From a virus: a DNA stretch of 47,367 bases. The position numbers and the translations under genes are program-made. The stretch spans positions 1 to 47,367 of IMG/VR virus record IMGVR_UViG_3300032285_000929; one strand, given 5' to 3'. Positions 1-47,367 of this stretch are shown piece after piece. The stretch's first letter is position 1. Every line of letters starts with the position of its first letter. The notes below the pieces were generated by a model. That model did not search any database and was not told where the DNA came from. It saw only the letters and a program-made list of their open reading frames with translations.

Positions 1-276
1 GACCGTGTTATCCTCAACCTTGTTGTACAGTTGGATCTCTGGAAACAGATCCTCTGGCATTGCCCTGAGTGCGGCAGCAAGGCGGATGACTTCGCTTCGC
101 CAATGGCCCCTGACGGCTGACTTAGCCGTCTCCTTCATGTTAATGAACTCTCCGACGACGGTGGCACTTACACCAGAAAGGCGAGCCAGTTCAGATTGAT
201 TGCGGATGCCTTCCCGCTCCATGTACTCAAGGATTCGGTTGTTCTTGACCTGAGTTATGACCCGGAAGTCTTTCAT
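1..276 (-). CDS. HTH (XRE-type) regulator, C-terminus cut by window edge
   Basis: The frame is open from the ATG at 276 to the window edge (92 codons) and begins MKDFRVITQVKNNRILEYME. The stretch NQSELARLSGVSATVVGEF reads as the helix-turn-helix of an XRE-type DNA-binding domain (residues about 30-50), and a later LRAMPEDLFPE stretch is typical of the end of such domains. The start overlaps the stop of the upstream 78-residue gene by ATGA, so the two are probably translationally coupled. By family it should act as a repressor or activator; its target is unknown. The palindrome at 1337-1381 is a nearby candidate site, but only by position. The missing C-terminus could add a peptidase or oligomerisation domain. 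Confidence 0.72.
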   Translation of the reverse strand, partial: MKDFRVITQVKNNRILEYMEREGIRNQSELARLSGVSATVVGEFINMKETAKSAVRGHWRSEVIRLAAALRAMPEDLFPEIQLYNKVEDNTV

Positions 277-3082: not shown

Positions 3083-3278
3083 GCGGGAAATAAAACTTTA
3101 TTGCGTCCATTACTAATTCGACAGTCGGGACCATATGCAGGTCGCCCGTATCGCAAATGACAACCCTCCACAATTTATACAGTTCCGACCACTGCACCCA
3201 CGCGAGTTTGTAATCACCATTGAAGACCGTAAACACCTTATCGCTGCTATATCGCGCCCTTAATTTACCGTTGCTCAT
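3057..3278 (-). CDS. Hypothetical protein, 73 aa
   Basis: Begins MSNGKLRARYSSDKVFTVFN; beta-rich with several aromatic residues (DYKLAWVQWSELYKLW). No family recognised. The ATG lies inside the primase gene end (14-nt overlap), so it is translated as the last gene of the replication operon. Confidence 0.6.
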   Translation of the reverse strand: MSNGKLRARYSSDKVFTVFNGDYKLAWVQWSELYKLWRVVICDTGDLHMVPTVELVMDAIKFYFPLDDNIEHA

Positions 3279-4197
3279 CGTTGCCTCTCATTTGATCCAA
3301 GAAGTCCGTGTCAGGCATCACCGGCACCCTCACTACCACTTCGATCTTCCGGCTCATCACCAGCCGCCGGGCGAGATCGTAGGCCGCTGCCTGTCCCGTA
3401 TAGTTCGCATCATTGTCTGAAAAAATCGTTAACCGCTTCACCGAAGCAGGCGGATTAAACGACCGTAGAAGCGGCGCGCTGATCGCCGACCACGTAGGCA
3501 CCCCAGTCGTCAGAAACGCCGCCAGAGCGGTCTCCACGCCCTCAGCAATACCCATCTCCTCAGCGACCGACGAGAACAGTCTGATGGCCGATCCTGTAGG
3601 TATCGTGCCCGCCATCAAAACCTTGACCGGCGACACATCCGCCTTCTGCCCGACCCTGTTCAGATACGTCCTGTGGATCGAGACAATGTTGCCGTTCTCG
3701 TCGTCGACCCGCGAGGCCATGATCGGGAACACTTGCTCAGGATCAGCAATGTGACGACCCATGCCGATTCGGATCGCGTGTGACCGGATCTTCTTGTCGA
3801 GCCTCTGTTTCAAATATCGGTCGACCGGATCATCGTCGACAACTGATTCGCAGAACGACCAGAACTTTCTGGCTCGCGCCTTAGCCTTGTCATCGGGCAT
3901 CCGGTCCCGCACAGCCTTGACGCCCGCCTTCGGGACCAATCCAACGACAAGATCCTTGGCGTCCTTCAAGGGCATCTTCTTGACCCGTGATATCAGGCTA
4001 AACCCATCACCGGCACCACATGCCGAGCAAATCCAATCTCCCCGGTTCTGCCTATTGTCAAACCTGAACCGATCCTGCCCGCCACAAATCGGGCATGGGC
4101 CATGCTTGCCAGAGAGATATTGGTCAGCGACCCCTGCACTCCGCAGGATGTCATGCCACCGACCGAGTGCTGCTGCTTCCGCGTCCTTGAAGTTCAT
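3265..4197 (-). CDS. DNA primase (P4-type zinc finger plus Toprim)
   Basis: 310 residues. An N-terminal zinc finger has CPICGG (Cys35, Cys38) and CSAC (Cys57, Cys60), the form of P4/plasmid-type primases that read template DNA. The C-terminal half shows a Toprim-like fold: EGVETALAA (Glu219) and IFSDND (Asp261, Asp263) should bind the catalytic metal. It would make RNA primers at the phage fork. No helicase domain is fused; the SF2 helicase gene directly upstream overlaps it by 47 nt, so the two are probably made together. Ribosome site AAGG about 9 nt before the ATG. Confidence 0.88.
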   Translation of the reverse strand: MNFKDAEAAALGRWHDILRSAGVADQYLSGKHGPCPICGGQDRFRFDNRQNRGDWICSACGAGDGFSLISRVKKMPLKDAKDLVVGLVPKAGVKAVRDRMPDDKAKARARKFWSFCESVVDDDPVDRYLKQRLDKKIRSHAIRIGMGRHIADPEQVFPIMASRVDDENGNIVSIHRTYLNRVGQKADVSPVKVLMAGTIPTGSAIRLFSSVAEEMGIAEGVETALAAFLTTGVPTWSAISAPLLRSFNPPASVKRLTIFSDNDANYTGQAAAYDLARRLVMSRKIEVVVRVPVMPDTDFLDQMRGNDEQR

Positions 4198-5668
4198 TTT
4201 TCTGAGCCTTTTCGCGTTGTTTAGCCTTAAAGATGTTCAGGTGCCTAATCCACGACAGAGTGGCCGCTGACGGAGGCATGGGAGCCGGTCTATCCGCCGG
4301 TCCGACACCGATCCGCTGCCGATATGCGTGATACGCCCACCCGGGCTGGTAACCCTTGATTTGCGCGTGACCGAGCAACTCAGCGTAGAATACCCGCTTT
4401 TGCTCGCGTGTCCACGACTTTGCTAATTGTTTCCCATCCTTGGTTAACTCCGACAGTTCTCCGCGCTCGGTCTCGATTTTCGACATAAACTCAGCCACGA
4501 ACCCGCAAGCCGGGCATTTCTGTGTCCTCAACGGCTTGATGAAAGCACACTTCGAACACGCCTTCGGGAGAAGTTGTTTCTTCTCAGTCGCCGCCTTCGC
4601 CTTTTCTCCATCATCCAGCGTTGCATGATTGATGTCGGTGACGAAGCCCAGACGCAGGGTCGTATCCGAGTGATCAAGGATCAAGCAGTCTTGTTTGCCC
4701 GGGGCGGTACGAAGTCCCCGTCCAATGATTTGCGTAAAGAGTATTTCCGATCTCGTCGGACGCGCCAAAATAATGCAGCGAACATCCCAGTCGATACCGG
4801 TCGTGAGTACCCCCACGTTGCAGACCACTTTGGTCTCGCCATTTGCGAATCGTGCAGCAATTTCTTCTCTCTCGTCGACTTCGGTGAAGGCGTCCATGTA
4901 GTCCGCCGCCACGCCCGCCTCAAGGAATTGTTGCTGCAATTTTTTCGCATGCGCTCGGTCGACACCGAAACACAATGTCGGCCTGTTCTCGCCCTTCTCC
5001 AACCACGTAGAGACGATATCAGCGACCAACGTTCCCTGCTGCATCGCCCTTGACAAGCCTTTGGTCTCGTAGTCGCCCTTCACAATCTTGACGCCCGTCA
5101 GATCAGGGTGCGCCGGAGCAAATACCCGAAACGGCGAAAGATACCCCGAATCAATCAGATGTTGCGTCGTCGTGCCGATGATCAGGTCGTCGTAAAGTTT
5201 TCCCATGCCCTTCGACCACGGTGTAGCCGTCAGGCCGATCACGGGAATTTTCTTTTCCGACAGTTCCGCGAACCATTTCTTGTAGAATTGAAACTGAACA
5301 TGCGCCTCGTCGATGATGACGAGACCAGCATCAGGAACGTTGCGGCGCATCAAAGTCTGAATGCTGGCCACCTGCACCTGAGCCGTGTGATCTGTCCGCT
5401 CATGATACGCCTGCATCACACCAATATCGAAGATCCCGTCACGTTCGAATGATTCGACCGTCTGGTTGACGAGCGAAATTGCTGGGACACAGAAGATGAC
5501 TTTGTGGCCCTTCTCCAGCGCCATGTTGATGATTGCCCCAGCCGTGGCTGTTTTACCGGCACCAGTGGGCATTTGAAGGACGGGCTTGCGCTTGCCAGAG
5601 CGAAGAGATGCCCTCAAATTGTCAATCGCATCCTTCTGGTAGTCCCGTAGATCATGCGCCGATGCCAT
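4151..5668 (-). CDS. SF2 DEAH-box DNA helicase with C-terminal zinc ribbon
   Basis: 505 residues from ATG 5668, preferred over ATG 5695 because GGGAG lies 7 nt upstream. Walker A is MPTGAGKT (about 34-41), the DEAH box is VIIDEAH (120-123), motif III is GLTATPW and motif VI is IIGRGLRT, so both RecA lobes are complete. Near residues 395-415 a four-cysteine ribbon (CSKC...CPACGF) may contact DNA. This is the type of SF2 helicase phages use in replication or origin remodelling. It overlaps the DnaA-like gene upstream and the primase downstream, giving an initiator-helicase-primase order. Confidence 0.9.
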   Translation of the reverse strand: MASAHDLRDYQKDAIDNLRASLRSGKRKPVLQMPTGAGKTATAGAIINMALEKGHKVIFCVPAISLVNQTVESFERDGIFDIGVMQAYHERTDHTAQVQVASIQTLMRRNVPDAGLVIIDEAHVQFQFYKKWFAELSEKKIPVIGLTATPWSKGMGKLYDDLIIGTTTQHLIDSGYLSPFRVFAPAHPDLTGVKIVKGDYETKGLSRAMQQGTLVADIVSTWLEKGENRPTLCFGVDRAHAKKLQQQFLEAGVAADYMDAFTEVDEREEIAARFANGETKVVCNVGVLTTGIDWDVRCIILARPTRSEILFTQIIGRGLRTAPGKQDCLILDHSDTTLRLGFVTDINHATLDDGEKAKAATEKKQLLPKACSKCAFIKPLRTQKCPACGFVAEFMSKIETERGELSELTKDGKQLAKSWTREQKRVFYAELLGHAQIKGYQPGWAYHAYRQRIGVGPADRPAPMPPSAATLSWIRHLNIFKAKQREKAQKNELQGRGSSSTRSVA

Positions 5669-6083
5669 TGTCGCGCTCCCAGCAATAGAGGTCATTCAGG
5701 ATCGTTGTGTGGTCACGCTTGAGCCACCGGCTCACTTGGGAGGCTGAATATTTTTGTTCGTTCACCGCCCGCCAAACCAGTTCGCGGCGCACCTTGACCA
5801 CGTTTTTTCGCCGGTCAGGATTGATGATCAATTTCGGGTCCATTTCGTGCTTCCGGGCAATGTCCATCAGCATTTCGTAGAACCCATTACGCGGAATGCC
5901 ATCAACCTTGAACACGATCTCAGGCTTCTCTTGTTTATCCACCTCAACTTTCACAGGCGGGCTTTTAATTGCAGAGATCGGCACAAGACCAGCGGGCTTC
6001 CCAAGACCGCCCAAACGCCGCCTGACGGCGATGTAGTGGGCCTTGAGGTCATTGTAGGACGCGAGATTCAGTTCCGTGGACAT
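5652..6083 (-). CDS. DnaA domain IV-like DNA-binding protein (putative origin binder)
   Basis: 143 residues from ATG 6083 (AAGGA 11 nt upstream; the in-frame TTG at 6107 is less likely). The C-terminal 75 residues look like domain IV of DnaA: a helix-turn-helix in SASQVSRWLK followed by the signature RDHTTILND (RDHTT at 123-127), which in DnaA contacts DnaA boxes. No AAA+ ATPase is present. The N-terminal half is unrecognised and Pro/Lys rich. Placed just before the helicase and primase, it could recruit them to an origin. A DnaA-box-like TTATCCACC (5935-5943) lies inside its own gene. Confidence 0.72.
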   Translation of the reverse strand: MSTELNLASYNDLKAHYIAVRRRLGGLGKPAGLVPISAIKSPPVKVEVDKQEKPEIVFKVDGIPRNGFYEMLMDIARKHEMDPKLIINPDRRKNVVKVRRELVWRAVNEQKYSASQVSRWLKRDHTTILNDLYCWERDNGIGA

Positions 6084-6438
6084 TTGGGTTTTTTCCTTCA
6101 ACTTCAATAAGCGTTACGATCATTGGCGCTACAAGATCCTCGGACCATTCCGCAGCCAGCGCCATGCACTGCGAATCATCCTCTACAATCTGCATTGCGA
6201 CAAGTAGATCGCTCGTCGCTTTCAACAGATTATCCAAGTCCCGGCGGCGTTTGTCCGCCCGCAAAACCGCGATGTGAATGGCATACTTGCCATCAATTTT
6301 GGTTTTGATTTGCTCTTTCAGCATCCACCCGGCTTCTTCGATCCAGTTTTTATATTCCTGCGACTTGTACATCCGCTTCCCGGAAATACGCCACAAACGA
6401 TTGACTGACGGTGCGAGGGGCAGGATGAATTGAAGCAT
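6049..6438 (-). CDS. rusA: RusA-family Holliday junction resolvase
   Basis: 129 residues, the usual size for RusA. Features visible: LAPSVNRLWRI near the N-terminus, and the metal-binding acidic pairs in RRRDLDNLLK (Asp67, Asp69, Asn70) and IVEDDSQ (Asp87, Asp88). RusA cuts four-way junctions symmetrically, resolving recombination or replication intermediates. It starts in a TAATG overlap with the HTH gene upstream and overlaps the DnaA-like gene by 35 nt. Confidence 0.9.
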   Translation of the reverse strand: MLQFILPLAPSVNRLWRISGKRMYKSQEYKNWIEEAGWMLKEQIKTKIDGKYAIHIAVLRADKRRRDLDNLLKATSDLLVAMQIVEDDSQCMALAAEWSEDLVAPMIVTLIEVEGKNPNVHGTESRVLQ

Positions 6439-6704
6439 TAAAAAAAATCCGCTGGTGTGAGTTCGTGATTGGTCGCCGCAATGATTTTCTTTGCCGCATT
6501 GACCAGTGGGGTTTGCTTGTATCGTTCAATCCTCGACAGTGACGATGAACTGATTCCGGTGATAACCGAAAGCCAATCCAATTTTACTCCGTTTGCTTGC
6601 CGCCAGAGTTTGAGCGGATGTCCATCCCCGGATCTCCAATCGGCGAGGTCGACAATCGGCCCGCGCTGTGGTTCCGCTGCATTCGGATTTGGCTGTTCTG
6701 CCAT
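6438..6704 (-). CDS. HTH Cro/CI-type regulator
   Basis: 88 residues from ATG 6704 (AGGGG 10 nt upstream; another ATG at 6713 is possible). After an unstructured N-terminus, residues about 30-88 are a single XRE/Cro domain: LKLWRQANGVKLDWLSVITG, then the recognition helix in SSSSLSRIERYKQTP. There is no peptidase or oligomerisation domain, so it resembles Cro rather than CI. It is the first gene of the leftward replication operon and faces the divergent region with two palindromic sites, so it is the best candidate to bind them. Confidence 0.75.
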   Translation of the reverse strand: MAEQPNPNAAEPQRGPIVDLADWRSGDGHPLKLWRQANGVKLDWLSVITGISSSSLSRIERYKQTPLVNAAKKIIAATNHELTPADFF

Positions 6705-6787
6705 GTCCAACATTCCCCTGTATCGTCTTGGAAGCAAATCCAAAAAAGATGATGCTCAAACCCGTAATCAATCAGAAAATGCGCCAT
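6584..6787 (-). CDS. Possible small protein overlapping the HTH gene, 67 aa
   Basis: Frame from ATG 6787 (AAGGG 8 nt upstream) reads MAHFLIDYGFEHHLFWICFQ then DDTGECWTWQNSQIRMQRNH. The first 44 residues look like a genuine small phage protein type I recall, unchecked, with an ECWT...N..R pattern; the rest overlaps the HTH gene by 121 nt and looks less protein-like. It may be a real gene whose 3' end was run into the HTH gene by recombination, or a remnant. Confidence 0.4.
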   Translation of the reverse strand: MAHFLIDYGFEHHLFWICFQDDTGECWTWQNSQIRMQRNHSAGRLSTSPIGDPGMDIRSNSGGKQTE

Positions 6788-6840
6788 GGCCGACCCTTTT
6801 GGGGTGGTCAAAGGAAGTGGGGGATCAAGGCGAATCACGG

Positions 6841-6869
6841 TTGACTCCGGTTGCATTCACCGCAACCAT
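6841..6869 (+). promoter_or_regulatory. Putative rightward early promoter
   Basis: TTGACT at 6841-6846 is a good -35. The -10 is poor: AACCAT at 17-nt spacing or CCATAT at 19. Palindrome S1 (6851-6865) lies between them, so a bound regulator would block polymerase. A leftward promoter, TTGCAT (6893-6888) - 17 nt - TATGGT (6870-6865), may face it for the replication operon. Confidence 0.4.
6851..6865 (-). promoter_or_regulatory. Putative operator S1
   Basis: Minus-strand TTGCGGTGAATGCAA. Matches the 15-bp element found at three other places in the two divergent control regions. Confidence 0.65.
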
Positions 6870-6878
6870 ATGCCGCAC

Positions 6879-6893
6879 TTTCATTGAATGCAA
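6879..6893 (+). promoter_or_regulatory. Putative operator S2
   Basis: TTTCATTGAATGCAA, 28 bp centre-to-centre from S1. It overlaps the putative leftward -35 and lies just upstream of the Gp157-like gene's ribosome site. Confidence 0.65.
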
Positions 6894-6905
6894 GAGGATT
6901 CAAAA

Positions 6906-7427
6906 ATGGAAATCAACCTGAGTAAATTAAAATATAACTTACCAATAATTGAGAAAGAAATTACCTCTTTCTTGGCTAGCATACAGAGTGATTATCATGA
7001 TTTAGTGTTAGATGATGAATTTAAACAAGATATTCTTGAAGGATCTACTGATTATATTACTATTATTGATAGACTACTGTTTAATCTAATATTGTCAGAA
7101 GAAACAAGTGAATCACTAAAACGCGCGCGCGCGAGGCTGCACGAGCGCGAGCAGCGGACCACCAAGCGGACTGAGATCATCCGGGGGCTAATTCGGCGAA
7201 TGATGCAGATCGCCGATTTGCGGAAGATTTCTGCCCCGAATGGAACCGTCAGCATCGGCATCAAACCGCAGGGTGTGGAAATTGTGGATGAGGGCTTGAT
7301 CCCGGATGAGTTCATGCGTATAAAACGAGAGCCGAACAAAACGCTGATCGGCGAAAAACTGAAGTCCGGGGACAATGTTCCCGGCACAAGACTGACTAAC
7401 GGTGGCGAAACTTTAATCATCAGGTAA
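6906..7427 (+). CDS. Gp157-like phage protein, compositionally chimeric
   Basis: 173 residues from ATG 6906 (AGAGGA 7 nt upstream). Layout matches the Siphovirus Gp157 family: an acidic helical N-terminus, a central coiled coil (LKRARARLHEREQRTTKR) and a C-terminal beta part with IPDEFMRIKREPNKTLI and a final GETLIIR. Members of this family sit beside recombination genes and have been linked to phage resistance or ERF function; their activity is unsettled. The first about 215 bases are strikingly AT-rich, then composition flips at a (CG)6 tract (7122-7133) where the coiled coil begins, with the frame kept. This looks like a homologous exchange between unlike donors. Confidence 0.82.
   Translation: MEINLSKLKYNLPIIEKEITSFLASIQSDYHDLVLDDEFKQDILEGSTDYITIIDRLLFNLILSEETSESLKRARARLHEREQRTTKRTEIIRGLIRRMMQIADLRKISAPNGTVSIGIKPQGVEIVDEGLIPDEFMRIKREPNKTLIGEKLKSGDNVPGTRLTNGGETLIIR
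7122..7133 (+). repeat. (CG)6 tract at composition boundary
   Basis: Twelve bases of alternating CG mark the abrupt change from AT-rich to GC-rich sequence inside the Gp157-like gene. Confidence 0.85.
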
Positions 7428-7431
7428 CAAA

Positions 7432-8160
7432 ATGAAAAACATAATTATCGCGCTGAACAAGGCCATGCAATCTGCTGGCTACGTTCAAAAGAACTCCGAG
7501 AACAAGTTCCACGGCTACAAGTATGCGTCTGAAGCGGATCTTCTTGAGACGCTGCGACCGGCAATGATTGAGCAGGGACTTGTGCTGATCCCATCTATCG
7601 GGAACGTCAGCGGCATCGACGATCACGGCAATACGAGGGTGTTTGTCGAATACACATTGGCCCACACTTCGGGCGAGATTTGGCCAGACAAGATTATGGC
7701 AGTTGGCTGTGGCAATGATCGGGCGAAAAATGGCACTGTCGGCGACAAGGGTGTCTACAAAGCCATCACCGGAGCGAACAAGTATCTTCTCTTCAAATTG
7801 TTTCAGATCGAAACTGGTGATGACCCGGAAAATGATGAGGTTGTTTCCCAGCCCGAAGAGAACAAAGATACTGGAAATTCGCGTAAGGATTTTGCTCCAA
7901 AGCCCGGTGAAAAGGGAAATAATACGAAGGCTAAGAATGCCGACGGTGTTTCTGCTACTCCTGAAGAAACCGAAAAATACATGCAAGTCTTCATTGCGGC
8001 CCTTGAGGCGCATGTGGACGAAAAAGAAATTCGTGAGTTTTGGAAGAGCGAAGCGAAAAATCGGGCGGCAATGTCCATCAAGCCCGACAGTGAAAATTAC
8101 AAGAAACTTGCCGATGCCTGCGCGCATTACATCGAAAAGGTGAAGAAAAATGGCCTATGA
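7432..8160 (+). CDS. erf: ERF-family single-strand annealing protein
   Basis: 242 residues. The N-terminal about 130 residues carry ERF hallmarks: NKFHGYKYASEADLLETLRP, then QGLVLIP, and KGVYKAITGANKYLLFKLF followed by TGDDPE. ERF proteins form rings that anneal complementary single strands, used for genome circularisation or recombination. A linker rich in Lys, Asn and Pro (about 135-185) leads to a helical C-terminal domain. It begins 4 nt after the Gp157-like stop and overlaps the SSB-like gene by 11 nt, forming a recombination module. Confidence 0.92.
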   Translation: MKNIIIALNKAMQSAGYVQKNSENKFHGYKYASEADLLETLRPAMIEQGLVLIPSIGNVSGIDDHGNTRVFVEYTLAHTSGEIWPDKIMAVGCGNDRAKNGTVGDKGVYKAITGANKYLLFKLFQIETGDDPENDEVVSQPEENKDTGNSRKDFAPKPGEKGNNTKAKNADGVSATPEETEKYMQVFIAALEAHVDEKEIREFWKSEAKNRAAMSIKPDSENYKKLADACAHYIEKVKKNGL

Positions 8161-18464: not shown

Positions 18465-21053
18465 TCAGTACCTCCCGTCCGGTTGAAAGCGATATTTGAC
18501 CGCGCCAAGCCGCCAAAAAGTCCCAGACCCAGAATTGTCGGTTGGGTTTGACAGACTGAAAGCCATGAACCTAGCGCGAATGCGGCAAGACACATATTCG
18601 GTCGTCGAAGTGATTGGGAATGTCAAACTTTGCACCGTGCTTGCTGGTGTTCCGCCCGGGTAGTTGCCGGATGCGCCGGTATAATACCCAGTCTGGAACG
18701 TCGCATCTGCTGGGTAGTTTGTGTAATAGATCGTGAAATTGACCGTCGCTGGCACTGAAGATTCACTATAATTTGTGAATTTGAAGTCGGGCCATATCTG
18801 GTCAATGAACACCATGCTGTCGCCTTCAGCCAACTGAAAGTAGCCGGTTTGCATGTTGGTGGCCATTGGTGCAGTTACACCATTGATCGGCGCGTCAAAC
18901 CCGACCTCATGCTGATAAATCCAGTTATCAGTTCCGGCAGCGATTGGAGGGCCGAGGACGGACTGATCAATCCATGCCGAACGGCCAAGCGATCCGTGGT
19001 CCCAACACTGAAGAACAATATTGTATTTCACATAAGTATCGTTCTCGCCATTCGCCGAAGCAGATGACGGGAAGAACCACATGATCTCATTGAACTGAGA
19101 ATTAACCGCGCATCGAATGTTTTGGACGTAAGCCAAATTTAAATTCTGAAACACAACATCCCATACCGAACATGGAAGAGGCACAGGGCCAGACGGAGAC
19201 AGAACAAAGAACTGGTTTTGAGACATCCAGTAAACGGTGTTGCTGAGTGTCCCTACGCTTTTGCGGCTGATCGCTCCACAATTGGTTCCAATTTTGTTGA
19301 ACCCATAAATGAACGGAAGTCCAACGTATTGCATCGCCCACAGATCAATATCCGTCCACAAAAGCCCCTGTTGCGGCCCTTGGATGCCAGAAACAATCTT
19401 CGACCCCGACGGCAAACGATAAGATCCCGCTTGATTGGTTGCGGTTCCATTCCAAACAGTTGGATCTCCAGCATCGCTCCACCGGACGTTCAGCGGATCT
19501 GGGGCCAGATTGAACGATGATCCATAAGCCACGATCTGCCGCTCTGGCATAGCAACAAAAATGCCCTCGTTCACCAAAGGGGTTTGCTCACTGACAATTT
19601 GCGCTGTCGTGAGAGATCCTCCCGGCCTGTAAAGATAAATTGCTCCACCGGTTGGGCAAGCGACCAAGTACGAGCCAAAATTGTCCAGCGTCCAATCTGT
19701 CGCCGTGATGGGAGCACCAGACTGATAAATCGTGGCCGTCATCGCCGTCGACGATACAGTCTGACTTATGCCCACCGTATAGGTTCCAGCGCCGCCAGAG
19801 CCTGAACCGTAAGCCGTAATTTTCGTCCCTGCTGCCACACCCGTGCCGCTGATAATATCGCCGATCAGAAGCGTACCAGTTGGTGCCGGAGAGGCTGCAA
19901 CTGTCAAAGTCGTGAGGCTGATTGATCCGGTAAATGTTGATACAGCCGGGATACCGGCACCATACCCGCCGATGCCATAGCCAACAACACCGTAACCACC
20001 GCCCGATGGAACCGATCCACCAGCGACAAAGAAATACGATTCAATAAGTCCGCTGTTGATGTAAACTGGCAATGCGGTTGATGTGGCAGAACCAGATACA
20101 CTGATGCAGAACATTTGAGATGTGTACGCCGCTTGAGAAGTGCCGGGTATGCCGCCAAGAGACGAGATCAAATAATTTCCCGGCGTCACGGTAATGCCGC
20201 CAACCGAGACAGATTGTGCAACGTAAATTGATTCGCCAACGCCACGATTATGATTCGGGAAAGTCACTGCGACCGTGCTAGATCCTACAAGCGTTGAAAA
20301 GGCATACGATGTAGCAACATTCCCAGTGATCGTGGTTGCGGTAACCGCAGATGCAGGGTTAACGCTGACTTGGTAGGTTCCAGCCGCGCCAGTTGTCCCA
20401 GATAACTGACTGACAATTACCGTTCCCGCTGGCGTTGTGCCTCCAGTTATGGTCATCCCGGGGCCGAAAACCCCTGTTATTGTGCCACCAACAGTCAAAA
20501 CGCCCGCAGTTGATATTGTGCAACTTGTCGCAGAACATGCGCTGTATATGGCAGCAGAATCCGCGTTGATTTTATATGTTGTGCCAGTCCCAAGAATAAT
20601 GGGATATGATCCATACAATGTGATTCCGCCGACGGATACTGGCGTATAATAGTAAACGTAATCAATCGTCGACGGTGAAAAACTGGCATCCGTTACCGTC
20701 ACCAATGTGCTTTCAGCAGTTGTAACGAAATTTGGTGTGACATTCGTGAATTGATATTGCGGGGTGATGTTGGACAGAAAGTTGTTTGAGTTAAGAATGT
20801 CCAATTCTGTCAACGCGCCAATTGCGAGATAATTCAGGCCGTTGAGATCCGACCACCCTTTCAACGCGCGAACGGTCGATGCAATGGCAGAACCATAGTA
20901 GTTCACCCAACCACCGATTTTTTGAACAAGACCTAAGCCTTTTACGTCAGGGATAAACCTTGCAAGGTTCGTGGATTGATACGAAACCTCACTGAGCGTT
21001 GGCGTCTCAATGATGTCGACGCCCGGCTTAATTTTGATCGTGCCATGAGGCAT
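18465..21053 (-). CDS. Tail nozzle/packaged-DNA-stabilisation-like protein, 862 aa
   Basis: The N-terminus ([20 protein letters not shown], then [20 protein letters not shown]) and the repeated beta-strand pattern with [16 protein letters not shown] and [20 protein letters not shown] resemble the P22 gp10/T7 gp12 class of tail nozzle proteins, beta-propellers at the tail tip. Between about 165 and 470 are inserted beta modules such as [20 protein letters not shown] and [20 protein letters not shown]. The gene is downstream of an adaptor gene, as in podoviruses. Family assignment is by pattern and order; confidence moderate. Confidence 0.65.
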
Positions 21054-26385: not shown

Positions 26386-28866
26386 TCACATGAACATGAA
26401 AAATCCGGACTTTGAAGTTGCCGGATTGTAAATAATGATGATCAGCCCTTGAGCGCCGCCGCCGCCTCCAGCACCAACAGAGACGTTGGAGCCACCGCCA
26501 CCGCCGCCGCCATAATTGCCACCAAGCCCACCAATTCCCGTGGTTGAACCCGTTGCCCCACCACCGCCGCCTGAGCCGGTTGCTGTCGTATATTCATTCC
26601 CAACGTTGCCAGAACCGCCATTTCCGGCAGCGTTACCAGCACCGCCAGTACCCCCTGATGTAACATCGCCTTGGCCACCAGCAGAAACAGAATTTGAAGT
26701 TGAGGTAAGACTTACGCCGTTGCTTCCCGCGCCATTTTTCCCTGCGCCACCGCCGCCGCCAGTCGCATTGGCATTGGTGCCAGTTGTTACAGATCCGCTG
26801 TTACCGCCATTATATTTGGTCGTTCCAATGCTGGCAGATGCGACCCCCCCTGAAGCAGCGGCAGCGGTCCCTGTTGCGGTGGCATTACCTCCACTTCCAC
26901 CTTTTGCGCCCACCGAAGATGCCGCAAAAGTCGCGCCATTAAACCACGTATCGTTCCCCGTAATACCAACAACTTGTCCAGTCCCGCCGACATTGGCCGT
27001 TGCGGCTGCAATGGAAAGCGAAATTACTGCGCCGGGCGTCAATGGCAAATTTGTAACTTTTGCATACGCCCCGCCGCCGCCCCCCGTCGCTGACGCGGGC
27101 GCTCCGGTAGAAGCGGCCCCACCGCCGCCCCCTCCAATTGCCTCAATTGAATTGTTCGCGTTGTTCCAATCCGTAGGAACTGTCCATGTTGTGGTCGATG
27201 TTGAAGATATGGCGTAAACAAGACCGGCATATGAATTTAAATAATAACCAGTTGTATTGCTTACGCTGCTTCCGGAACCAATGTACCAACGGTATGGAAC
27301 AGTTCCGGTTGTTGTGGCTGCTGGCGTAAATGCAATATCAGTTACGCTCAAGTAATTTACGTTTACATAACTTAACCCAGTATAATTTATTGTAGCCGTT
27401 GTTCCGCCTGTATTGCTTTTCAAAGTCAGTAAATTTCCAGCGGTTCCAGTGGCCGTGAAATTAGTAACGTTTGTGGCTGATGCTGTTGGAAAACTAATTG
27501 TCGACGGCACTGAAGTGGTGCTTATGGACGCGAATGTTGCGCTGCCGCCGCTGATGGTAAGCGCTCCAGCGCCTCCTTGATTGATCGTGGCCGCGTATGT
27601 TGACCCACCGGTAATGAATGTTTTTGCCGTTGCCCCGGTAAAACTGATTGTTCCGTTCCCGCCCGCTCCTGCGGTTGTTGTGAAATTGGTTGGTACAGCA
27701 TTATTGAATGCAGTCGTATTCGTGCCCGGTACAATAATCGTACCGCCGTTGAACGTAATGTTTTTTGTTCCGGTCGCAGTTGTATAGGCACCAGCGGCAG
27801 TGCCAAGGTTCAGCGTTTTTCCATTGAGGTCCAACGTACCGTTTGTGTGCGTTAGCACACGGGTAGCGCCAAATGTGATGGCGCTCGCGAGTTGAAGAGT
27901 GCCGCCAACGCCATTGATCGTAATGGAAAGTTCCCACGTTTGCCCGTTGGAATTTAGGGTTTTGGTCCCCGTAGTTGAGGAAAATTGCAGTGCATTGGCT
28001 GTTGTGGGGATCGTCATCGTTGCCGATGTGATCAAACTTCCATAAATAATTTGAGGGCTGTTTGTTGTGAATGCGGCCCACGTCCCTGAAAAACCCGTAA
28101 AATTCAGGGTCCCCAACACGCCGCCGCTGTTTGTGCCAATGGAAAAAGTATCTGTTCCGGCAGTAATGTTGATATTTGGAACGGTCGTTTCCGACGCTCC
28201 AGTAGTCACCATGCCAATCGATCTTGTTCCTGTGGCACCGGAATAGGTGAGATTGAATGTCGGGGTAGTCGTCAAAGTCAAATTGGTAACGGTTCCCAAA
28301 CCAAGAACCTGTTGGGCGTTACCTGTAACGTTAAATTGGCCCGTTCCTGATGTCAGGGTTCTTGCCGTGGAACTTGTCCAACTGAACGTCAAACATGTTA
28401 CGTTGAAATTGTTGAGATTCAGCGTACCAGCAGTAAAGGTCATTGTAGAACTTGTTGCAAAATCATCTTGAAGTGACCAACCGCCGCCCGTGCCAGAAAA
28501 TGCTACAGTTCCACCTATTGTGTTCCCGTTGCTGGTTATTGTTTTTCCTGTAGACGTTGCGTTAAATGTAAAAGAAATTGCTGACGAAAAAGTTGTATTA
28601 GAAGCAAGAAATAAACTTCCAGAAATCGTAATTGATGGAGTAGCGCCTCCCAAAAATGTTCCGCCTGAAACTGAAATAGTTAGATCAAGACAGACGGCTG
28701 ATGAGACAGCCATACCTACGAATGATCCAGAATTTGAATCAAAAAAAACAGAATCAGCCGCTGTAGGTACAGATGCACCGCCTGCGCCGCCAGATGTTGT
28801 GGCCCAATTAAGAGTGTTCGTCGTATTCCAAGAAGACGCACCACCGACCCAATACCGATTCGCCAC
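26386..28866 (-). CDS. Tail adhesin with polyglycine-rich C-terminal domain, 826 aa
   Basis: GTG start with GGGAG 8 nt upstream. Residues 1-560 are a repetitive Ser/Thr/Asn beta-helix-like shaft (MANRYWVGGASSWNTTNTLN). Residues about 570-805 are a Gly-rich domain with runs of five to eight Gly (EAIGGGGGGAASTG; GSGGGGGATGSTTGIGGLGG), ending AQGLIIIIYNPATSKSGFF. Gly runs of this kind form polyglycine-II sandwiches in the receptor-binding adhesins of phage S16 and relatives. I infer the host-recognition tip. Confidence 0.78.
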   Translation of the reverse strand: MANRYWVGGASSWNTTNTLNWATTSGGAGGASVPTAADSVFFDSNSGSFVGMAVSSAVCLDLTISVSGGTFLGGATPSITISGSLFLASNTTFSSAISFTFNATSTGKTITSNGNTIGGTVAFSGTGGGWSLQDDFATSSTMTFTAGTLNLNNFNVTCLTFSWTSSTARTLTSGTGQFNVTGNAQQVLGLGTVTNLTLTTTPTFNLTYSGATGTRSIGMVTTGASETTVPNINITAGTDTFSIGTNSGGVLGTLNFTGFSGTWAAFTTNSPQIIYGSLITSATMTIPTTANALQFSSTTGTKTLNSNGQTWELSITINGVGGTLQLASAITFGATRVLTHTNGTLDLNGKTLNLGTAAGAYTTATGTKNITFNGGTIIVPGTNTTAFNNAVPTNFTTTAGAGGNGTISFTGATAKTFITGGSTYAATINQGGAGALTISGGSATFASISTTSVPSTISFPTASATNVTNFTATGTAGNLLTLKSNTGGTTATINYTGLSYVNVNYLSVTDIAFTPAATTTGTVPYRWYIGSGSSVSNTTGYYLNSYAGLVYAISSTSTTTWTVPTDWNNANNSIEAIGGGGGGAASTGAPASATGGGGGAYAKVTNLPLTPGAVISLSIAAATANVGGTGQVVGITGNDTWFNGATFAASSVGAKGGSGGNATATGTAAAASGGVASASIGTTKYNGGNSGSVTTGTNANATGGGGGAGKNGAGSNGVSLTSTSNSVSAGGQGDVTSGGTGGAGNAAGNGGSGNVGNEYTTATGSGGGGGATGSTTGIGGLGGNYGGGGGGGSNVSVGAGGGGGAQGLIIIIYNPATSKSGFFMFM

Positions 28867-39524: not shown

Positions 39525-39917
39525 TTACCAAATCGCATCGGGGAATTTGCTCGTCCCTCGGATGTCAATGTCATCAACCAATCGGCAATCGACACCGTGG
39601 ACATTCAGCGACCAACTTTCTGCCGGTCGAAAGAAAACCCACTCGCCAACTTCGACATTTCTGCCATTGAACCATTTGTTTTCTGGATCAACGAACGCCT
39701 GCGGACCCTTTTTGATCACAAGACCAACCTTGCCCTGATACCGGTCTTCATCGACCGTTTTATTGGTCAAAATGATGCCGCTGGCTGTCTTTTCGGGCCT
39801 GATATAGATCGCAATAAGCAGTTGGTTCTTGAAAACTTCAATATCGCTGATGTCTCCAAGTTCATCCAAAATATGCTGTTTCGGATCAACCGCGTGTTTC
39901 ATTCGCATAAATGGCAT
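39525..39917 (-). CDS. GroES-like co-chaperonin
   Basis: 130 residues. The Cpn10 core is visible: VFKNQLLIAIYIRPEKTASG, with the mobile-loop hydrophobic tip GIIL (47-50), then DRYQGKVGLVIKKGPQAF and VEVGEWVFFRPAE, ending in a VDDIDIRG strand. The loop binds the GroEL rim in known co-chaperonins such as T4 gp31. Directly before the scaffold and capsid genes, it probably replaces host GroES when the capsid protein folds. No GroEL homologue is present, so host GroEL is the inferred partner. GAGGAG ribosome site; TAATG overlap with the upstream gene. Confidence 0.8.
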   Translation of the reverse strand: MPFMRMKHAVDPKQHILDELGDISDIEVFKNQLLIAIYIRPEKTASGIILTNKTVDEDRYQGKVGLVIKKGPQAFVDPENKWFNGRNVEVGEWVFFRPAESWSLNVHGVDCRLVDDIDIRGTSKFPDAIW

Positions 39918-40129
39918 TACTTGCTCCTCTCCCTGCCAAGAAGCACAGACTCAGCATCGTCCATGAGATCCAACGCCTTGCGAAGACCAGCGATCACGCC
40001 AACCCGGTGATTGTGGGGTGCGGGTTCTGTAATGAAATAGGAAACAGCGGTCTCTTTTTCGACCTCAATTGTTTCTTCTATCAGTTTCGCAAGTATGACC
40101 ATGAAACGGTCTGAATATGTCTGTGCCAT
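39917..40129 (-). CDS. Hypothetical protein, first gene of late operon, 70 aa
   Basis: ATG 40129 preferred over a TTG at 40147. Begins MAQTYSDRFMVILAKLIEET, helical with RVGVIAGLRKALDLMDDAES near the end. No family recognised. It opens the late operon, next to operator sites S3 and S4, and is coupled to the GroES-like gene by TAATG. Its ribosome site is poor. Confidence 0.6.
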   Translation of the reverse strand: MAQTYSDRFMVILAKLIEETIEVEKETAVSYFITEPAPHNHRVGVIAGLRKALDLMDDAESVLLGRERSK

Positions 40130-40163
40130 TGTTATCGTATGGCACAATTTGGGTCATAATTTT

Positions 40164-40178
40164 TTACAATGAATGCAA
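40164..40178 (+). promoter_or_regulatory. Putative operator S3
   Basis: TTACAATGAATGCAA; 13 of 15 bases equal S4. It lies 35-49 nt upstream of the late operon's first start codon, across the likely leftward promoter region. Confidence 0.65.
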
Positions 40179-40195
40179 ATTCACGTCTGTTTAAC

Positions 40196-40224
40196 TTGCA
40201 ATGAACGCAAAATGCTGCTATAAG
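40196..40224 (+). promoter_or_regulatory. Promoter of metalloprotease gene with embedded operator S4
   Basis: TTGCAA (40196-40201), 17 nt, TATAAG (40219-40224) with TG one base before it, an extended -10. The operator TTGCAATGAACGCAA (40196-40210) overlaps the -35 and spacer, so binding would block the promoter. Expected start about 40231, giving a 46-nt leader. Confidence 0.72.
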
Positions 40225-40276: not shown

Positions 40277-40792
40277 ATGCCAGCACAACGCGATTCACAA
40301 CGCAGCAAAGTTTATCGGTCGGAGAGGGTTCTGAGGCAATTTGCCAATCCCCTGCCAACAATCACTGATATCGAAAAGTTCATTACCAAAGAGATGAGCC
40401 GCAAACGGATCATCGACAAATACCCTGACGCGGTTCGCTCAATCGTTGTCGCTGATGGTCGGGGTCGTCGTCGGGCATGTGCTTATGGCGGCAGGCAGAT
40501 CTCAATGCCAAAGTGGTCCAGAAACACTCACATCGTGATCCACGAAGTTGCACACATTATATCGGCGCGACATTACGGTCATCAGATTGCCGGTCATGGG
40601 TGGGAGTATTGCTCGGTCTATCTTGATCTCGTCCGGCACATCATGGGCGTCGAGGCTTTCGAAACTTTGAAGCAGTCTTTCAAAGATCACAAAGTGAAGT
40701 TCAGCGAGCCGAAGAAGCGCAAGCCGCTGTCTCCTGAAATGCGCGCAGCACTCGCCGAGCGGTTGAAAGCAGCACGAGCAGCCAAGGCGTAA
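40277..40792 (+). CDS. HEXXH zinc metalloprotease-like protein, 171 aa
   Basis: Starts at ATG 40277 (GGGG 6 nt upstream; ATG 40265 has none). HEVAH (89-93) is the zinc and catalytic motif, and GHGWEYCSVYLDLV (from about 106) supplies a third His. DGRGRRRACAYGGRQISMPK forms the strand before. This agrees with the small putative metallohydrolase family TIGR04338, not with classic ImmA. The C-terminus is basic. It is the only plus-strand gene in the right 30 kb, has its own promoter and operator, and faces the late operon. It might cleave a repressor or a host protein; unproven. Confidence 0.75.
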   Translation: MPAQRDSQRSKVYRSERVLRQFANPLPTITDIEKFITKEMSRKRIIDKYPDAVRSIVVADGRGRRRACAYGGRQISMPKWSRNTHIVIHEVAHIISARHYGHQIAGHGWEYCSVYLDLVRHIMGVEAFETLKQSFKDHKVKFSEPKKRKPLSPEMRAALAERLKAARAAKA

Positions 40793-40797
40793 CTGAC

Positions 40798-40840
40798 AAA
40801 AAAGGCCGGGGTGATTAGCCCCGGCCAGTCTGTGGTTTTT
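40798..40840. terminator. Bidirectional intrinsic terminator
   Basis: GGCCGGGG (40804-40811) and CCCCGGCC (40819-40826) form a perfect 8-bp stem with a 7-nt loop. On the minus strand six T follow directly, ending the transcript of the 542- and 1582-residue genes. On the plus strand TTTTT comes 9 nt later (40836-40840), a weaker terminator for the metalloprotease gene. Confidence 0.85.
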
Positions 40841-45500: not shown

Positions 45501-47300
45501 TTCTTTCGCCAAACGTTCAACATCGTTGACTGCTTGGCTCATGTTAATCCAAGCGGGGTCCGTTGTTGATGTTGCTGGATTGCGGTTTAATTCTTGAGAA
45601 ATAGCCCACAATCCGGCTGGGTCTTTGTTCCAATCGTAAATGCTACCGGATTGCGCCCTATATTTTGCAGAACCAAGGCCCGGCTCCGGCGTCACACGAT
45701 TAGGATCACCCAGATAAAAATATGAACGATTCATAACACCGCCCGGCACAGAATACAGGCGATCTCTTTCAGCCCCCTTTAAGCCAGTCCCATAGCGAGA
45801 GGGGTCGGTCATCGTCAAATTTGGATCTCGGCTGAAATGCGCGAGCGTCGAAGAAAGTGTGGTCCCGGGTTCTGGTTTAATTAATGGTTGAATATAACTT
45901 GGCATTCCTCCGGCATACTCAGTGCTGAGAAATTCAGGGGGCAACAAAACGGCTTTGTTGGGAGCATATTGCCAATCCTGCATAGCCTCTGTTTTTGCTC
46001 TTTTAAGAGCCTCAATTTCATCTGTGCGACCATCCTTGATTGCGCTAACCAAGCGCATTTCAATTTGGCCAAGTTGGTCAAATGTCTTCATATTTAGCGG
46101 GGTGTAATTCACAACGCTGTTTTGGCCGCGCGTTTCAGCGGTCATCGCTAATCTCGCAAGAGGCGAATACATTCTGGAATGAACGCCCCACGCCCTTTCT
46201 TCGCCTTGCGGTCCAAAAGTGTTCCCTAAAATTGCGTGACCAAACGCATCATGAACGGCACGAAATTTTTCATTCTCGTTCAAGCCTGTTTCTGGATCGA
46301 CATTGTGCAAAAAGTCGTGCCTGTCTCCGCCTTGATAAACGAACAAATGCCCATTGTTGTGAACATCGTTCACCATGTGGCCGCTGCTTTCGTAATTTCC
46401 TTCACCGGCACGATGAAACGAGTATCGCAAAGGCAATGCTTCAAACTGATCAGCGGTTTCCTTTGCCATTTGACGATAGGCGGCTTCAAGAAGTTGATCG
46501 TAATTTTGCGCGCCCGACTGCTCAATGACTTCAGGCATCATTCTGCCGTAGGCATCAAAAATTGCTGACTTGTATTCAGGGCTTCCTTCAGCCGCTAAAT
46601 TGAATGTGCGTCCAATTGCGCTCTGTTTGGTGAGCGACGAACGCGGCATTTCGGGCTGCGAAATTGGAGGCAATCCAATTGACTCAACATATTTGTTTGC
46701 AGCCTTCAGCGGAATATTGGCTTCCGCCGATGGCATCAAAGGTGATGTTTTGCCCGTGATCGGGTCAAGTTGCGGAGTTCCGTATGGAGTCGGTCCTCTT
46801 CGTGCGGCATCAGCGGGCGAACTGGGCCATGTTTCTTGTCCAGATCTGCCAGCAATTGATCCCTCCTCGCCTGCCGGTCTTGGATGGACGCGGTAGAATG
46901 GTCCTTCTTGGGAAGTTCCATATTTCATTCTCCTTAAAATTGCATTTTCTGCTGATGATAATTCATGGCCAAGACCGCCTTCCATTGGCAGCATTGCCAT
47001 AGCAGCACCACGATAATCACCAGATTTTAATGCTTCTTGGCCACCGAGAACTTGGCCGACAGGCGTCACATCGGCAACGCTGAACCCAGTCGTTCCCAAA
47101 CCACGCGAACCAACAAGACCTTGGCCAAACTGCTCCTTGTTGAGCGACGGTTGATCGCCCAACATCCAACTGGCAACACGGTCGCGCCACGTTGGCTCAT
47201 ACGGCTTGACGACTGCGCCGGGCAGACTGCTTGTGTCTACAGTTTTTGCCTGCGCCAATGCCTGCTGGATTGCGCTATCGTCTGAGAGGTTGTCAGCCAT
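42552..47300 (-). CDS. Giant virion protein: polyvalent-type domain plus lytic transglycosylase, 1582 aa
   Basis: GGAG 9 nt before ATG 47300. Residues about 347-395 (VHDAFGHAILGNTFGPQGEE, then MYSPLARLAMTAETRGQNS) match a domain I recall from large phage polyvalent proteins. Around 530-625 is an ADP-ribosyltransferase-like or related stretch (EYGYSGIANTKHRYPMAIMF). GG motifs occur at about 627 (GGRTEHATKSAVDD), 828 (IGRAEHATKGAVDE) and 1258. Residues about 1290-1440 are a transglycosylase: catalytic Glu in GPESGHNN, GAFGKYQM and YAAHFIGAGAATRVL. It probably enters with the DNA and opens peptidoglycan, like T7 gp16. Confidence 0.75.
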   Translation of the reverse strand: MADNLSDDSAIQQALAQAKTVDTSSLPGAVVKPYEPTWRDRVASWMLGDQPSLNKEQFGQGLVGSRGLGTTGFSVADVTPVGQVLGGQEALKSGDYRGAAMAMLPMEGGLGHELSSAENAILRRMKYGTSQEGPFYRVHPRPAGEEGSIAGRSGQETWPSSPADAARRGPTPYGTPQLDPITGKTSPLMPSAEANIPLKAANKYVESIGLPPISQPEMPRSSLTKQSAIGRTFNLAAEGSPEYKSAIFDAYGRMMPEVIEQSGAQNYDQLLEAAYRQMAKETADQFEALPLRYSFHRAGEGNYESSGHMVNDVHNNGHLFVYQGGDRHDFLHNVDPETGLNENEKFRAVHDAFGHAILGNTFGPQGEERAWGVHSRMYSPLARLAMTAETRGQNSVVNYTPLNMKTFDQLGQIEMRLVSAIKDGRTDEIEALKRAKTEAMQDWQYAPNKAVLLPPEFLSTEYAGGMPSYIQPLIKPEPGTTLSSTLAHFSRDPNLTMTDPSRYGTGLKGAERDRLYSVPGGVMNRSYFYLGDPNRVTPEPGLGSAKYRAQSGSIYDWNKDPAGLWAISQELNRNPATSTTDPAWINMSQAVNDVERLAKEYGYSGIANTKHRYPMAIMFDPMEVQKAGRATGGRTEHATKSAVDDVDTSYLSNLWRGLQSIPETAYNYLKNTSYSQMGSDALDLGKNVYHDITEHPIENLLGALPVVGSGMAAYDAYKLNDRIKQAYASGNDEDARKLERALALSSLSAIPVFGELSSVGSSAARMAEEAALHGAAEVGSHAIANAIPHDAYQLAQSVASNKIDQALDAAKKRMFSDMNDERKVRPDIGRAEHATKGAVDEPDDFLPQQTLEDPADTILRKMGTPNTFLGGMGDQYPTSSFHQPHLVAAGLSAAQRALLPDRPANLSAIPIKRTGADILAKDPALAANPPVLSERGKPFHELEYTYTPRGNLVPWKEKTPEELYKEGAYLLPAVGDKTAADYIIHSIMANKLSQPTVMEGGFDFQRGLHSLGDNPAAWASRPGAVEGMWTKILNKNIPPDSPVYMTSVNMGAPAGDSSHHMAEALLRQIDPSNLSQKGIDAVNNFLSKKIENWPGIQNPKIVEELLRRNNVGAETALIAEAMDKATPYEAGFPDVGAARFAITNPRMFSADQLASGYSMSKLDLTKPPFMDEDGHPTYPKKLPSVSGYEGGFKYQVPAEIMFSDWASGLPEITKRGIPPLPTEKQQSLMTKMPVQKATQEWLDNLMRHQEEHKKIWGYRKGGRASGNNAIDNALRSAHDGFANGGVTPDADTLVTGLTEQIAGPESGHNNAAYNPASGAFGKYQMLPSTALSLQQKYHPEMGVDDAGNSLSNDQRLRQITLNHQLQTELATNLTRENMKVLQSHGIDTSPGNVYAAHFIGAGAATRVLSADPSTPLASLISPKAIAANPMLANMTAGDFAAFTNRAMSGFKPQNRVENASTKRFPTMRTVQAPGPMPNFAIGTGQASQDTETQFAKASDPVLAALNVAKSTPSSQFEQPAAPQSQQTPPFMQELTKSQMSLPTVDGLSVAQWAKRHAFGDISRVHGRVKYVDGQPRLQFYLA

Positions 47301-47367
47301 CGAAAAAGTCTCCGAGATGGCGACAATCTATCCGATTTCCAATTACTTGCCAAGGAAGTGCAGCGTC
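47293..47367 (-). CDS. C-terminal end of a gene cut by the window edge
   Basis: A frame open from the edge, reading DAALPWQVIGNRIDCRHLGD and stopping at TGA 47293-47295, overlapping the start of the 1582-residue gene by 8 nt. That overlap is like others in the phage. Only 24 residues are visible, so identity cannot be given; portal or terminase would be expected here by gene order. Confidence 0.35.
   Translation of the reverse strand, partial: DAALPWQVIGNRIDCRHLGDFFDG

What the first reader, a model, noticed from the sequence alone, without database searches (positions are those of the whole stretch)
40164..40224. Shared 15-bp operator in two distant divergent control regions
Sites S3 (TTACAATGAATGCAA, 40164) and S4 (TTGCAATGAACGCAA, 40196) match S1 (minus TTGCGGTGAATGCAA, 6851) and S2 (TTTCATTGAATGCAA, 6879). 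By eye I saw no comparable pair elsewhere. All four lie in the two divergent intergenic regions, 33 kb apart. S4 sits between the -35 and extended -10 of the metalloprotease promoter. This suggests one regulator switches early recombination and replication, the late operon and the metalloprotease together.
Basis: partly seen in the sequence, partly recalled or inferred. Interest (0 to 1): 0.85.

Follow-up and report, generated by a model that had tools for sequence, protein, structure and literature searches.

The report
Shared phage operator, early and late
Four copies of one short DNA sign in this uncultured phage are real, conserved binding sites at both its early and its late promoters, very probably read by one small phage protein that turns early genes down and controls the late genes.

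Summary
S1-S4 are at the stated coordinates and are the four best matches in the window. A matrix built only from relatives' early sites ranks exactly these four first; shuffles give 0.02 such hits, and never a close pair in 300 shuffles. The motif is an imperfect 4-7-4 palindrome, TTGC-N7-GCAA.

Relatives settle its meaning. In 17 loci the operator follows TTGAC by a fixed 4-5 bp at the same divergent early region, beside an orthologue of the 88-aa Cro/CI-type HTH protein. In G020 and G017, which lack the metalloprotease, it stands 34-35 nt before the same late gene, as S3 does. Four lineages carry it before the small terminase gene, a region missing from this partial contig. In more distant HTH orthologues the early operator has changed sequence but kept its spacing.

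So one regulator probably links early and late genes. The metalloprotease is not the primary target: it was inserted beside pre-existing operators. Early sites fit steric repression. Late sites sit near -42 with no -35 element, which suggests, but does not prove, activation: an early-to-late switch like phi29 p4's. Binding was not tested.

The parts
6851..6865 (-). Operator S1, in the spacer of the rightward early promoter, 4 bp after TTGACT
   Evidence: orthologous position in 17 loci
6879..6893 (+). Operator S2, 4 bp after TTGAAT read leftward; same sequence (other strand) as the terminase-promoter operators of G030 and G003
40164..40178 (+). Operator S3, 34 nt before the late1 start codon (centre -42 from the ATG)
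   Evidence: aligned with G020 and G017
40196..40210 (+). Operator S4, 32 bp from S3; aligned with the upstream late operator of G020; left half doubles as -35-like TTGCAA for the metalloprotease
6841..6846 (+). TTGACT, likely -35 of the rightward early promoter
   Evidence: TTGAC invariant in alignment A4 and in 17 loci
6898..6903 (-). TTGAAT, likely -35 of the leftward early promoter
   Evidence: sequence; TTGACG/TTGACA at this place in G003, G004, G007, G020
6438..6704 (-). 88-aa Cro/CI-type HTH protein, proposed reader of the operator
   Evidence: Pfam HTH_3 E 2.9e-4, below the curated cut-off; model helices 30-77 at high pLDDT; orthologue at the same place in 24 contigs and in G017, G020, G030
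6584..6838 (-). Conserved small ORF between operators and HTH gene (GTG start), function unknown
   Evidence: read; no family match
6906..7427 (+). Gam/Gp157-like protein, first rightward early gene
   Evidence: phrog_253 1.3e-22, PF05565 5.6e-20
7432..8160 (+). Erf-type single-strand annealing protein
   Evidence: phrog_155 3.7e-31
3265..6438 (-). Leftward early operon downstream of the HTH gene: RusA, DnaA-C-like, helicase, primase
39917..40129 (-). late1, first gene of the GroES/head operon; no ribosome-binding site seen, start probably at or near the transcript start
39525..39917 (-). GroES-like co-chaperonin (late2)
   Evidence: phrog_3188 1.4e-10
40277..40792 (+). Putative HExxH metalloprotease, inserted between the late terminator and S3/S4
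   Evidence: HEVAH read from sequence; no family match; relatives in Caulobacter/Brevundimonas phages; absent from the late-region relatives
40804..40826 (-). Intrinsic terminator of the upstream leftward operon
   Evidence: equivalents directly before the late operator in L070 and L067

Best explanation
S1-S4 are binding sites for one phage-encoded dimeric HTH regulator, most likely the 88-aa protein of the leftward early operon. At the early divergent region it binds inside the -35/-10 spacers of both promoters and blocks them, including its own. At the late1/GroES/head promoter (S3, S4), and in relatives also at the terminase promoter, the same sites govern late transcription; because they lie near -42 of a promoter without a -35 box, bound protein most likely recruits RNA polymerase. 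The result would be an early-to-late switch. Shown: the sites, their conservation at early and late (and terminase) places, their constant geometry, their linkage to the HTH gene. Inferred: the identity of the binder, repression early, activation late.
For: Relatives-only matrix ranks S1-S4 as the top four. HTH orthologue beside the early operator in 24 contigs. TTGAC-N-N4/5-operator geometry kept in 17 loci, although the operator drifts from TTGC-N7-GCAA to TTAC-N7-GTAA with HTH orthologues about 33-46% identical to the window's. Late operator 34/34/35 nt before late1 in window, G020 and G017. Terminase operator in G020, G030, G003 and L178. Co-occurrence: the three records with both group-A HTH and a late1 region have the late operator (window, G017, G020); nine sampled records with a related late region but no detectable HTH lack it, and so does MW202675. 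Fold hits are small dimeric XRE regulators, among them C proteins and SinR, at weak E-values.
Against: No binding or transcription data. Late -10 and start positions are guesses; the late set is three lineages. The terminase operator overlaps a 4/6 -35-like hexamer, which also fits repression. The group-B records with a late3 homologue carry no early-type operator upstream of late1, so late control by this site is not universal to the HTH family. Some records lacking the HTH may be fragments.
Confidence: 0.55

Rival explanations
1. The same HTH protein is a pure repressor at all sites: it damps early genes and delays late, terminase and metalloprotease expression until its level falls or DNA is replicated.
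For: Operators overlap promoter elements at the early region; S4 overlaps the metalloprotease -35 (TTGCAA-17-TATAAG); the terminase operator overlaps a GTGAAA/ATGAAA hexamer 18 bp from TATAAC. Most Cro/CI-type proteins without extra domains repress (general knowledge).
Against: Late1 promoters of three lineages lack any -35-like hexamer at the right place while the operator keeps a fixed 34-35 nt distance to the start codon, which a repressor would not need.
Confidence: 0.32
2. The operator is read by another protein: the truncated HTH protein at window 1-276 (-), the small conserved ORF 6584-6838, or a host factor.
For: The window-end protein is also Cro/CI-like (weak); the small ORF is as conserved in position as the HTH.
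Against: No homologue of the window-end protein was found in loci that carry the operator; the small ORF has no DNA-binding match; operator sequence changes with phage clade while host-factor sites would not; late operators are absent where the HTH is absent.
Confidence: 0.1
3. S3/S4 belong to the metalloprotease as an acquired cargo gene that brought its own repressor sites.
For: S4 overlaps its likely -35.
Against: G020, L068, L069, G016 and G017 have the late operators but no metalloprotease; S3 and S4 align with G020's two late operators.
Confidence: 0.02
4. Chance similarity.
For: One 16.9-bit match also occurs inside a gene (28557).
Against: Shuffle test and conservation.
Confidence: 0.01

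Closest known systems
phi29 regulatory protein p4 (early-to-late switch; PMC3100819)
   Same: One early phage protein binds several inverted-repeat sites, represses early promoters and activates a late promoter.
   Different: phi29's early and late promoters share one region and p4 works with p6; p4's site is CTTTTT-15 bp-AAAATG and its binding mode (an N-hook) is not a Cro/CI HTH. Here sites are 33 kb apart and activation is only inferred.
Cluster A mycobacteriophage (L5-type) repressors and stoperators (PMC9283540)
   Same: One phage repressor with sites dispersed over the genome in promoters and intergenic spaces.
   Different: Those are more than twenty 13-bp asymmetric sites bound by a two-domain monomer of a temperate phage; here few 15-bp palindromes and a single short HTH protein, no tyrosine integrase found.
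Lambdoid/P22 Cro and CI operators (general knowledge)
   Same: Small Cro/CI-type HTH, short palindromes, divergent early promoters, operator between -35 and -10; CI also activates from a site near -42.
   Different: Operators are also at late structural and terminase promoters; both divergent operons here are lytic functions.
C (controller) proteins of restriction-modification systems, e.g. C.AhdI, C.Esp1396I, C.BclI
   Same: Small XRE dimers, best Foldseek neighbours; known to activate or repress according to operator position (general knowledge).
   Different: No restriction genes here; sequence identity only 21-28% and Foldseek E above 0.06.

Membership tests
Cro/CI-type (XRE, HTH_3) regulators | Five-helix HTH fold with recognition helix | tested here: met
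   PF01381 E 2.9e-4 but 21.2 bits under the 23-bit cut-off; profile match to SinR and others down to 1.9e-7; model helices 30-38, 42-49, 53-60, 68-77
Cro/CI-type (XRE, HTH_3) regulators | Binds palindromic operators next to its own gene | tested here: inconclusive
   Conserved palindrome beside the operon start in 17 loci; binding not testable here
phi29 p4-type early-to-late switch | Same protein's sites at early and late promoters | tested here: met
   as a site property; the binder is inferred
phi29 p4-type early-to-late switch | Homology to p4 or its binding mode | tested here: not met
   Cro/CI-type HTH instead
phi29 p4-type early-to-late switch | Activation of the late promoter | not testable with these tools
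   Only positional argument
Temperate-phage immunity repressor | Integrase/lysogeny module | tested here: not met
   No PF00589 match in the window or 11 related records; serine integrases not searched and records are partial
L5-type stoperators | Many asymmetric sites, one orientation with transcription | tested here: not met
   Four palindromic sites in the window

The most novel reading that the evidence does not exclude
An 88-aa Cro-family protein of an apparently lytic, uncultured phage group acts alone as both autorepressor of divergent early promoters and activator of the head and terminase promoters, through the same 15-bp palindrome placed at different distances: a one-protein temporal switch over a whole genome.
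Probability: 0.4. Interest if true: 0.7.

Novelty: new variant of a known kind. Interest (0 to 1): 0.5.

Why it matters
It gives a concrete regulon (early, head and, in relatives, terminase promoters) for a phage group found here only in environmental contigs, with a named regulator and sites that can be tested in one reporter experiment. If activation is confirmed, it is a minimal early-to-late switch built from an ordinary Cro-type protein in phages with no tyrosine integrase found. It also shows a putative metalloprotease gene captured beside an existing late operator.

Tried and rejected
Chance (shuffles). Metalloprotease-specific sites (relatives without the gene keep them). The window-end HTH as binder (no homologue where the operator occurs). 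A cultured relative with the same early module: none in the phage collection for the HTH; Roseobacter phage CRP-901 has a similar layout, with an HTH gene at a divergent region, but an unrelated-looking HTH and no such operator. Host assignment through cellular genomes: only one weak XRE match, in a betaproteobacterial MAG. A direct search with the metalloprotease gave no relative in viral contigs. The G017 match at 20964 looked like a terminase operator but lies in what looks like coding sequence. Early-type operators near late1 of group B: none. The consensus promoter scanner lists no early or late promoter near the sites.

Full report
What was checked. They are variants of an imperfect palindrome TTGC-N7-GCAA; one relative (G003) has the perfect 7-1-7 form TTGCATTGAATGCAA. 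To avoid circularity I built a matrix only from 13 early-region sites of relatives. On the window it ranks S1, S4, S3 and S2 first to fourth (21.2, 20.2, 19.3, 19.1 bits); a coding match at 28557 follows at 16.9 and the rest are below 11. In 300 dinucleotide shuffles the mean number of hits at the S3/S4 level was 0.02, and no shuffle held two within 60 bp.

The early region. The leftward 88-aa protein (6438-6704) is Cro/CI-like (PF01381 E 2.9e-4, just below the curated cut-off; confident helices in the model; sequence-profile matches to SinR, C.BclI and CylR2). Relatives found with the Erf protein show the same order, helicase, DnaA-like, RusA and HTH leftward against Gam, Erf and an SSB-like gene rightward, in 24 contigs. 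Between the HTH gene and the operators lies a further conserved leftward ORF of unknown function (6584-6838), so both operators sit in about 65 bp of true intergenic DNA. In 17 loci the operator begins 4 or 5 bp after TTGACN; in the 10-sequence alignment TTGAC and most outer operator bases are invariant. G003, G004, G007, G020 and G030 have two adjacent operators, and where the opposite side is seen it carries TTGACG or TTGACA read leftward, so each divergent promoter has an operator in its spacer. The window keeps this plan as TTGACT-CCGG-S1 and TTGAAT-CCTC-S2. This is the geometry of steric repression, including autorepression. The -10 hexamers in the window itself are poor and were not resolved.

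HTH and operator change together. Relatives in group B have HTH proteins about 33-46% identical to the window's and, at the same place and spacing, TTAC-N7-GTAA (TTTACATCATGCGTAAA); L010 is intermediate with TTTCACGTCATGCAA. A host-protein site would not be expected to drift with the phage clade.

The late region. Searching with the GroES-like late2 protein gave relatives of the late operon. L068, L069 and L070 (G020) have TTACATTCATTGCAA and TTACACTCATCGCAA 33 bp apart, and L066/L067 (G016/G017) have TTACAATCATTGCAA, just before late1; in L070 and L067, read in full, they follow an intrinsic terminator. None has the metalloprotease. The distance from the nearer operator to the late1 start codon is 34, 34 and 35 nt in window, G020 and G017 (counted). 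In the window the matching terminator is at 40804-40826, and the metalloprotease gene lies between it and S4. So S3/S4 are old late-promoter operators and the metalloprotease is the newcomer. G017 and G020 both also carry the group-A HTH. Nine other sampled records with a related late region but no detectable HTH have no such site before late2/late1 as far as examined, nor does MW202675, whose capsid protein is 90% identical to the window's but whose early module differs.

A third place. In G020, G030, L178 and G003 the operator (TTGCATTCARTGAAA) stands shortly before the small terminase gene (67-68 bp from operator start to ATG in G020, G030 and L178), followed by an invariant AAAGTGTTATGTTATAACATTACAT (TerS by phrog_309). 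S2 in the window has exactly the G030/G003 form. The terminase segment is not in the window: the contig ends inside an HTH gene (1-276) on the left and just after the start of a 1582-aa gene on the right, and in G020 the corresponding stretch follows the DNA methylase gene.

Mechanism. Early sites lie in the -35/-10 spacer behind good TTGAC boxes, which points to repression. Late1 has no visible ribosome-binding site; if its transcript starts at or near the ATG, the operator centre is at about -42 and the -35 positions read AAAAAT, AACGAT and ACAATT in window, G020 and G017, none like TTGACA. That is the usual place for an activator touching RNA polymerase. This step is inference from three lineages and unmapped starts. 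At the terminase promoter the operator overlaps a 4/6 -35-like hexamer 18 bp from TATAAC, which allows either sign. S4's left half is also the only -35-like hexamer for the metalloprotease (TTGCAA-17-TATAAG), so bound protein would probably keep that gene down.

Known comparisons. The logic resembles phi29 p4 (PMC3100819), but the protein is of another kind and the sites are far apart. Dispersed sites recall L5-type repressors (PMC9283540), but those sites are asymmetric, numerous and belong to temperate phages. No tyrosine integrase was found in the window or in 11 related records, so a lysogeny repressor is less likely, though the records are partial and serine integrases were not searched. 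The HTH protein had no match among 50,697 phage records.

Limits. Nothing here measures binding or transcription. Contigs are partial. The number of independent late-operator lineages is three and of terminase-operator lineages four.

Noticed in passing
window 1-276 and 47300-47367: The contig ends inside a Cro/CI-like HTH gene and just after the start of a 1582-aa gene; compared with G020 the terminase segment is missing, so this is a partial genome.
   Followed up: partly
L172:10902-10922 and equivalents in L178, L179, L004: Small-terminase promoters share an invariant block with the perfect palindrome ATGTTATAACAT over the likely -10, possibly a site for a second regulator.
   Followed up: partly
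window 40127-40145; L070:7178-7212; L067:9754-9789; group B late1 (L062, L072, L076, L077): late1 has no visible ribosome-binding site in window, G020 and G017 (probably leaderless or nearly so); group B instead has a CCATG...CATGG dyad over the late1 start.
   Followed up: partly
window 6584-6838 (-): Conserved small protein (TPKG.A.AHFLIDYG.EH..MWICFQ..TGECW) between operators and HTH gene in both groups, no family match; possible partner or antagonist of the regulator.
   Followed up: partly
L227:551 and L227:1139 (G013): Two identical TTTACGCGCTATGTAAA copies 588 bp apart, resembling the group-B operator, near gene starts.
   Followed up: partly
window 28557-28571: A fifth, weaker operator-like match (TTGCGTTAAATGTAA, 16.9 bits) inside the 826-aa gene 26386-28866; probably chance.
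   Followed up: partly
window 6841-6850 and 6894-6903: Both early -35 boxes of the window contain GANTC (GACTC, GAATC), the CcrM methylation site of many alphaproteobacteria; not kept in relatives.
   Followed up: no
window 40277-40792: The putative HExxH protein has its best relatives (41-48% identity) in very large Caulobacter and Brevundimonas phages.
   Followed up: partly
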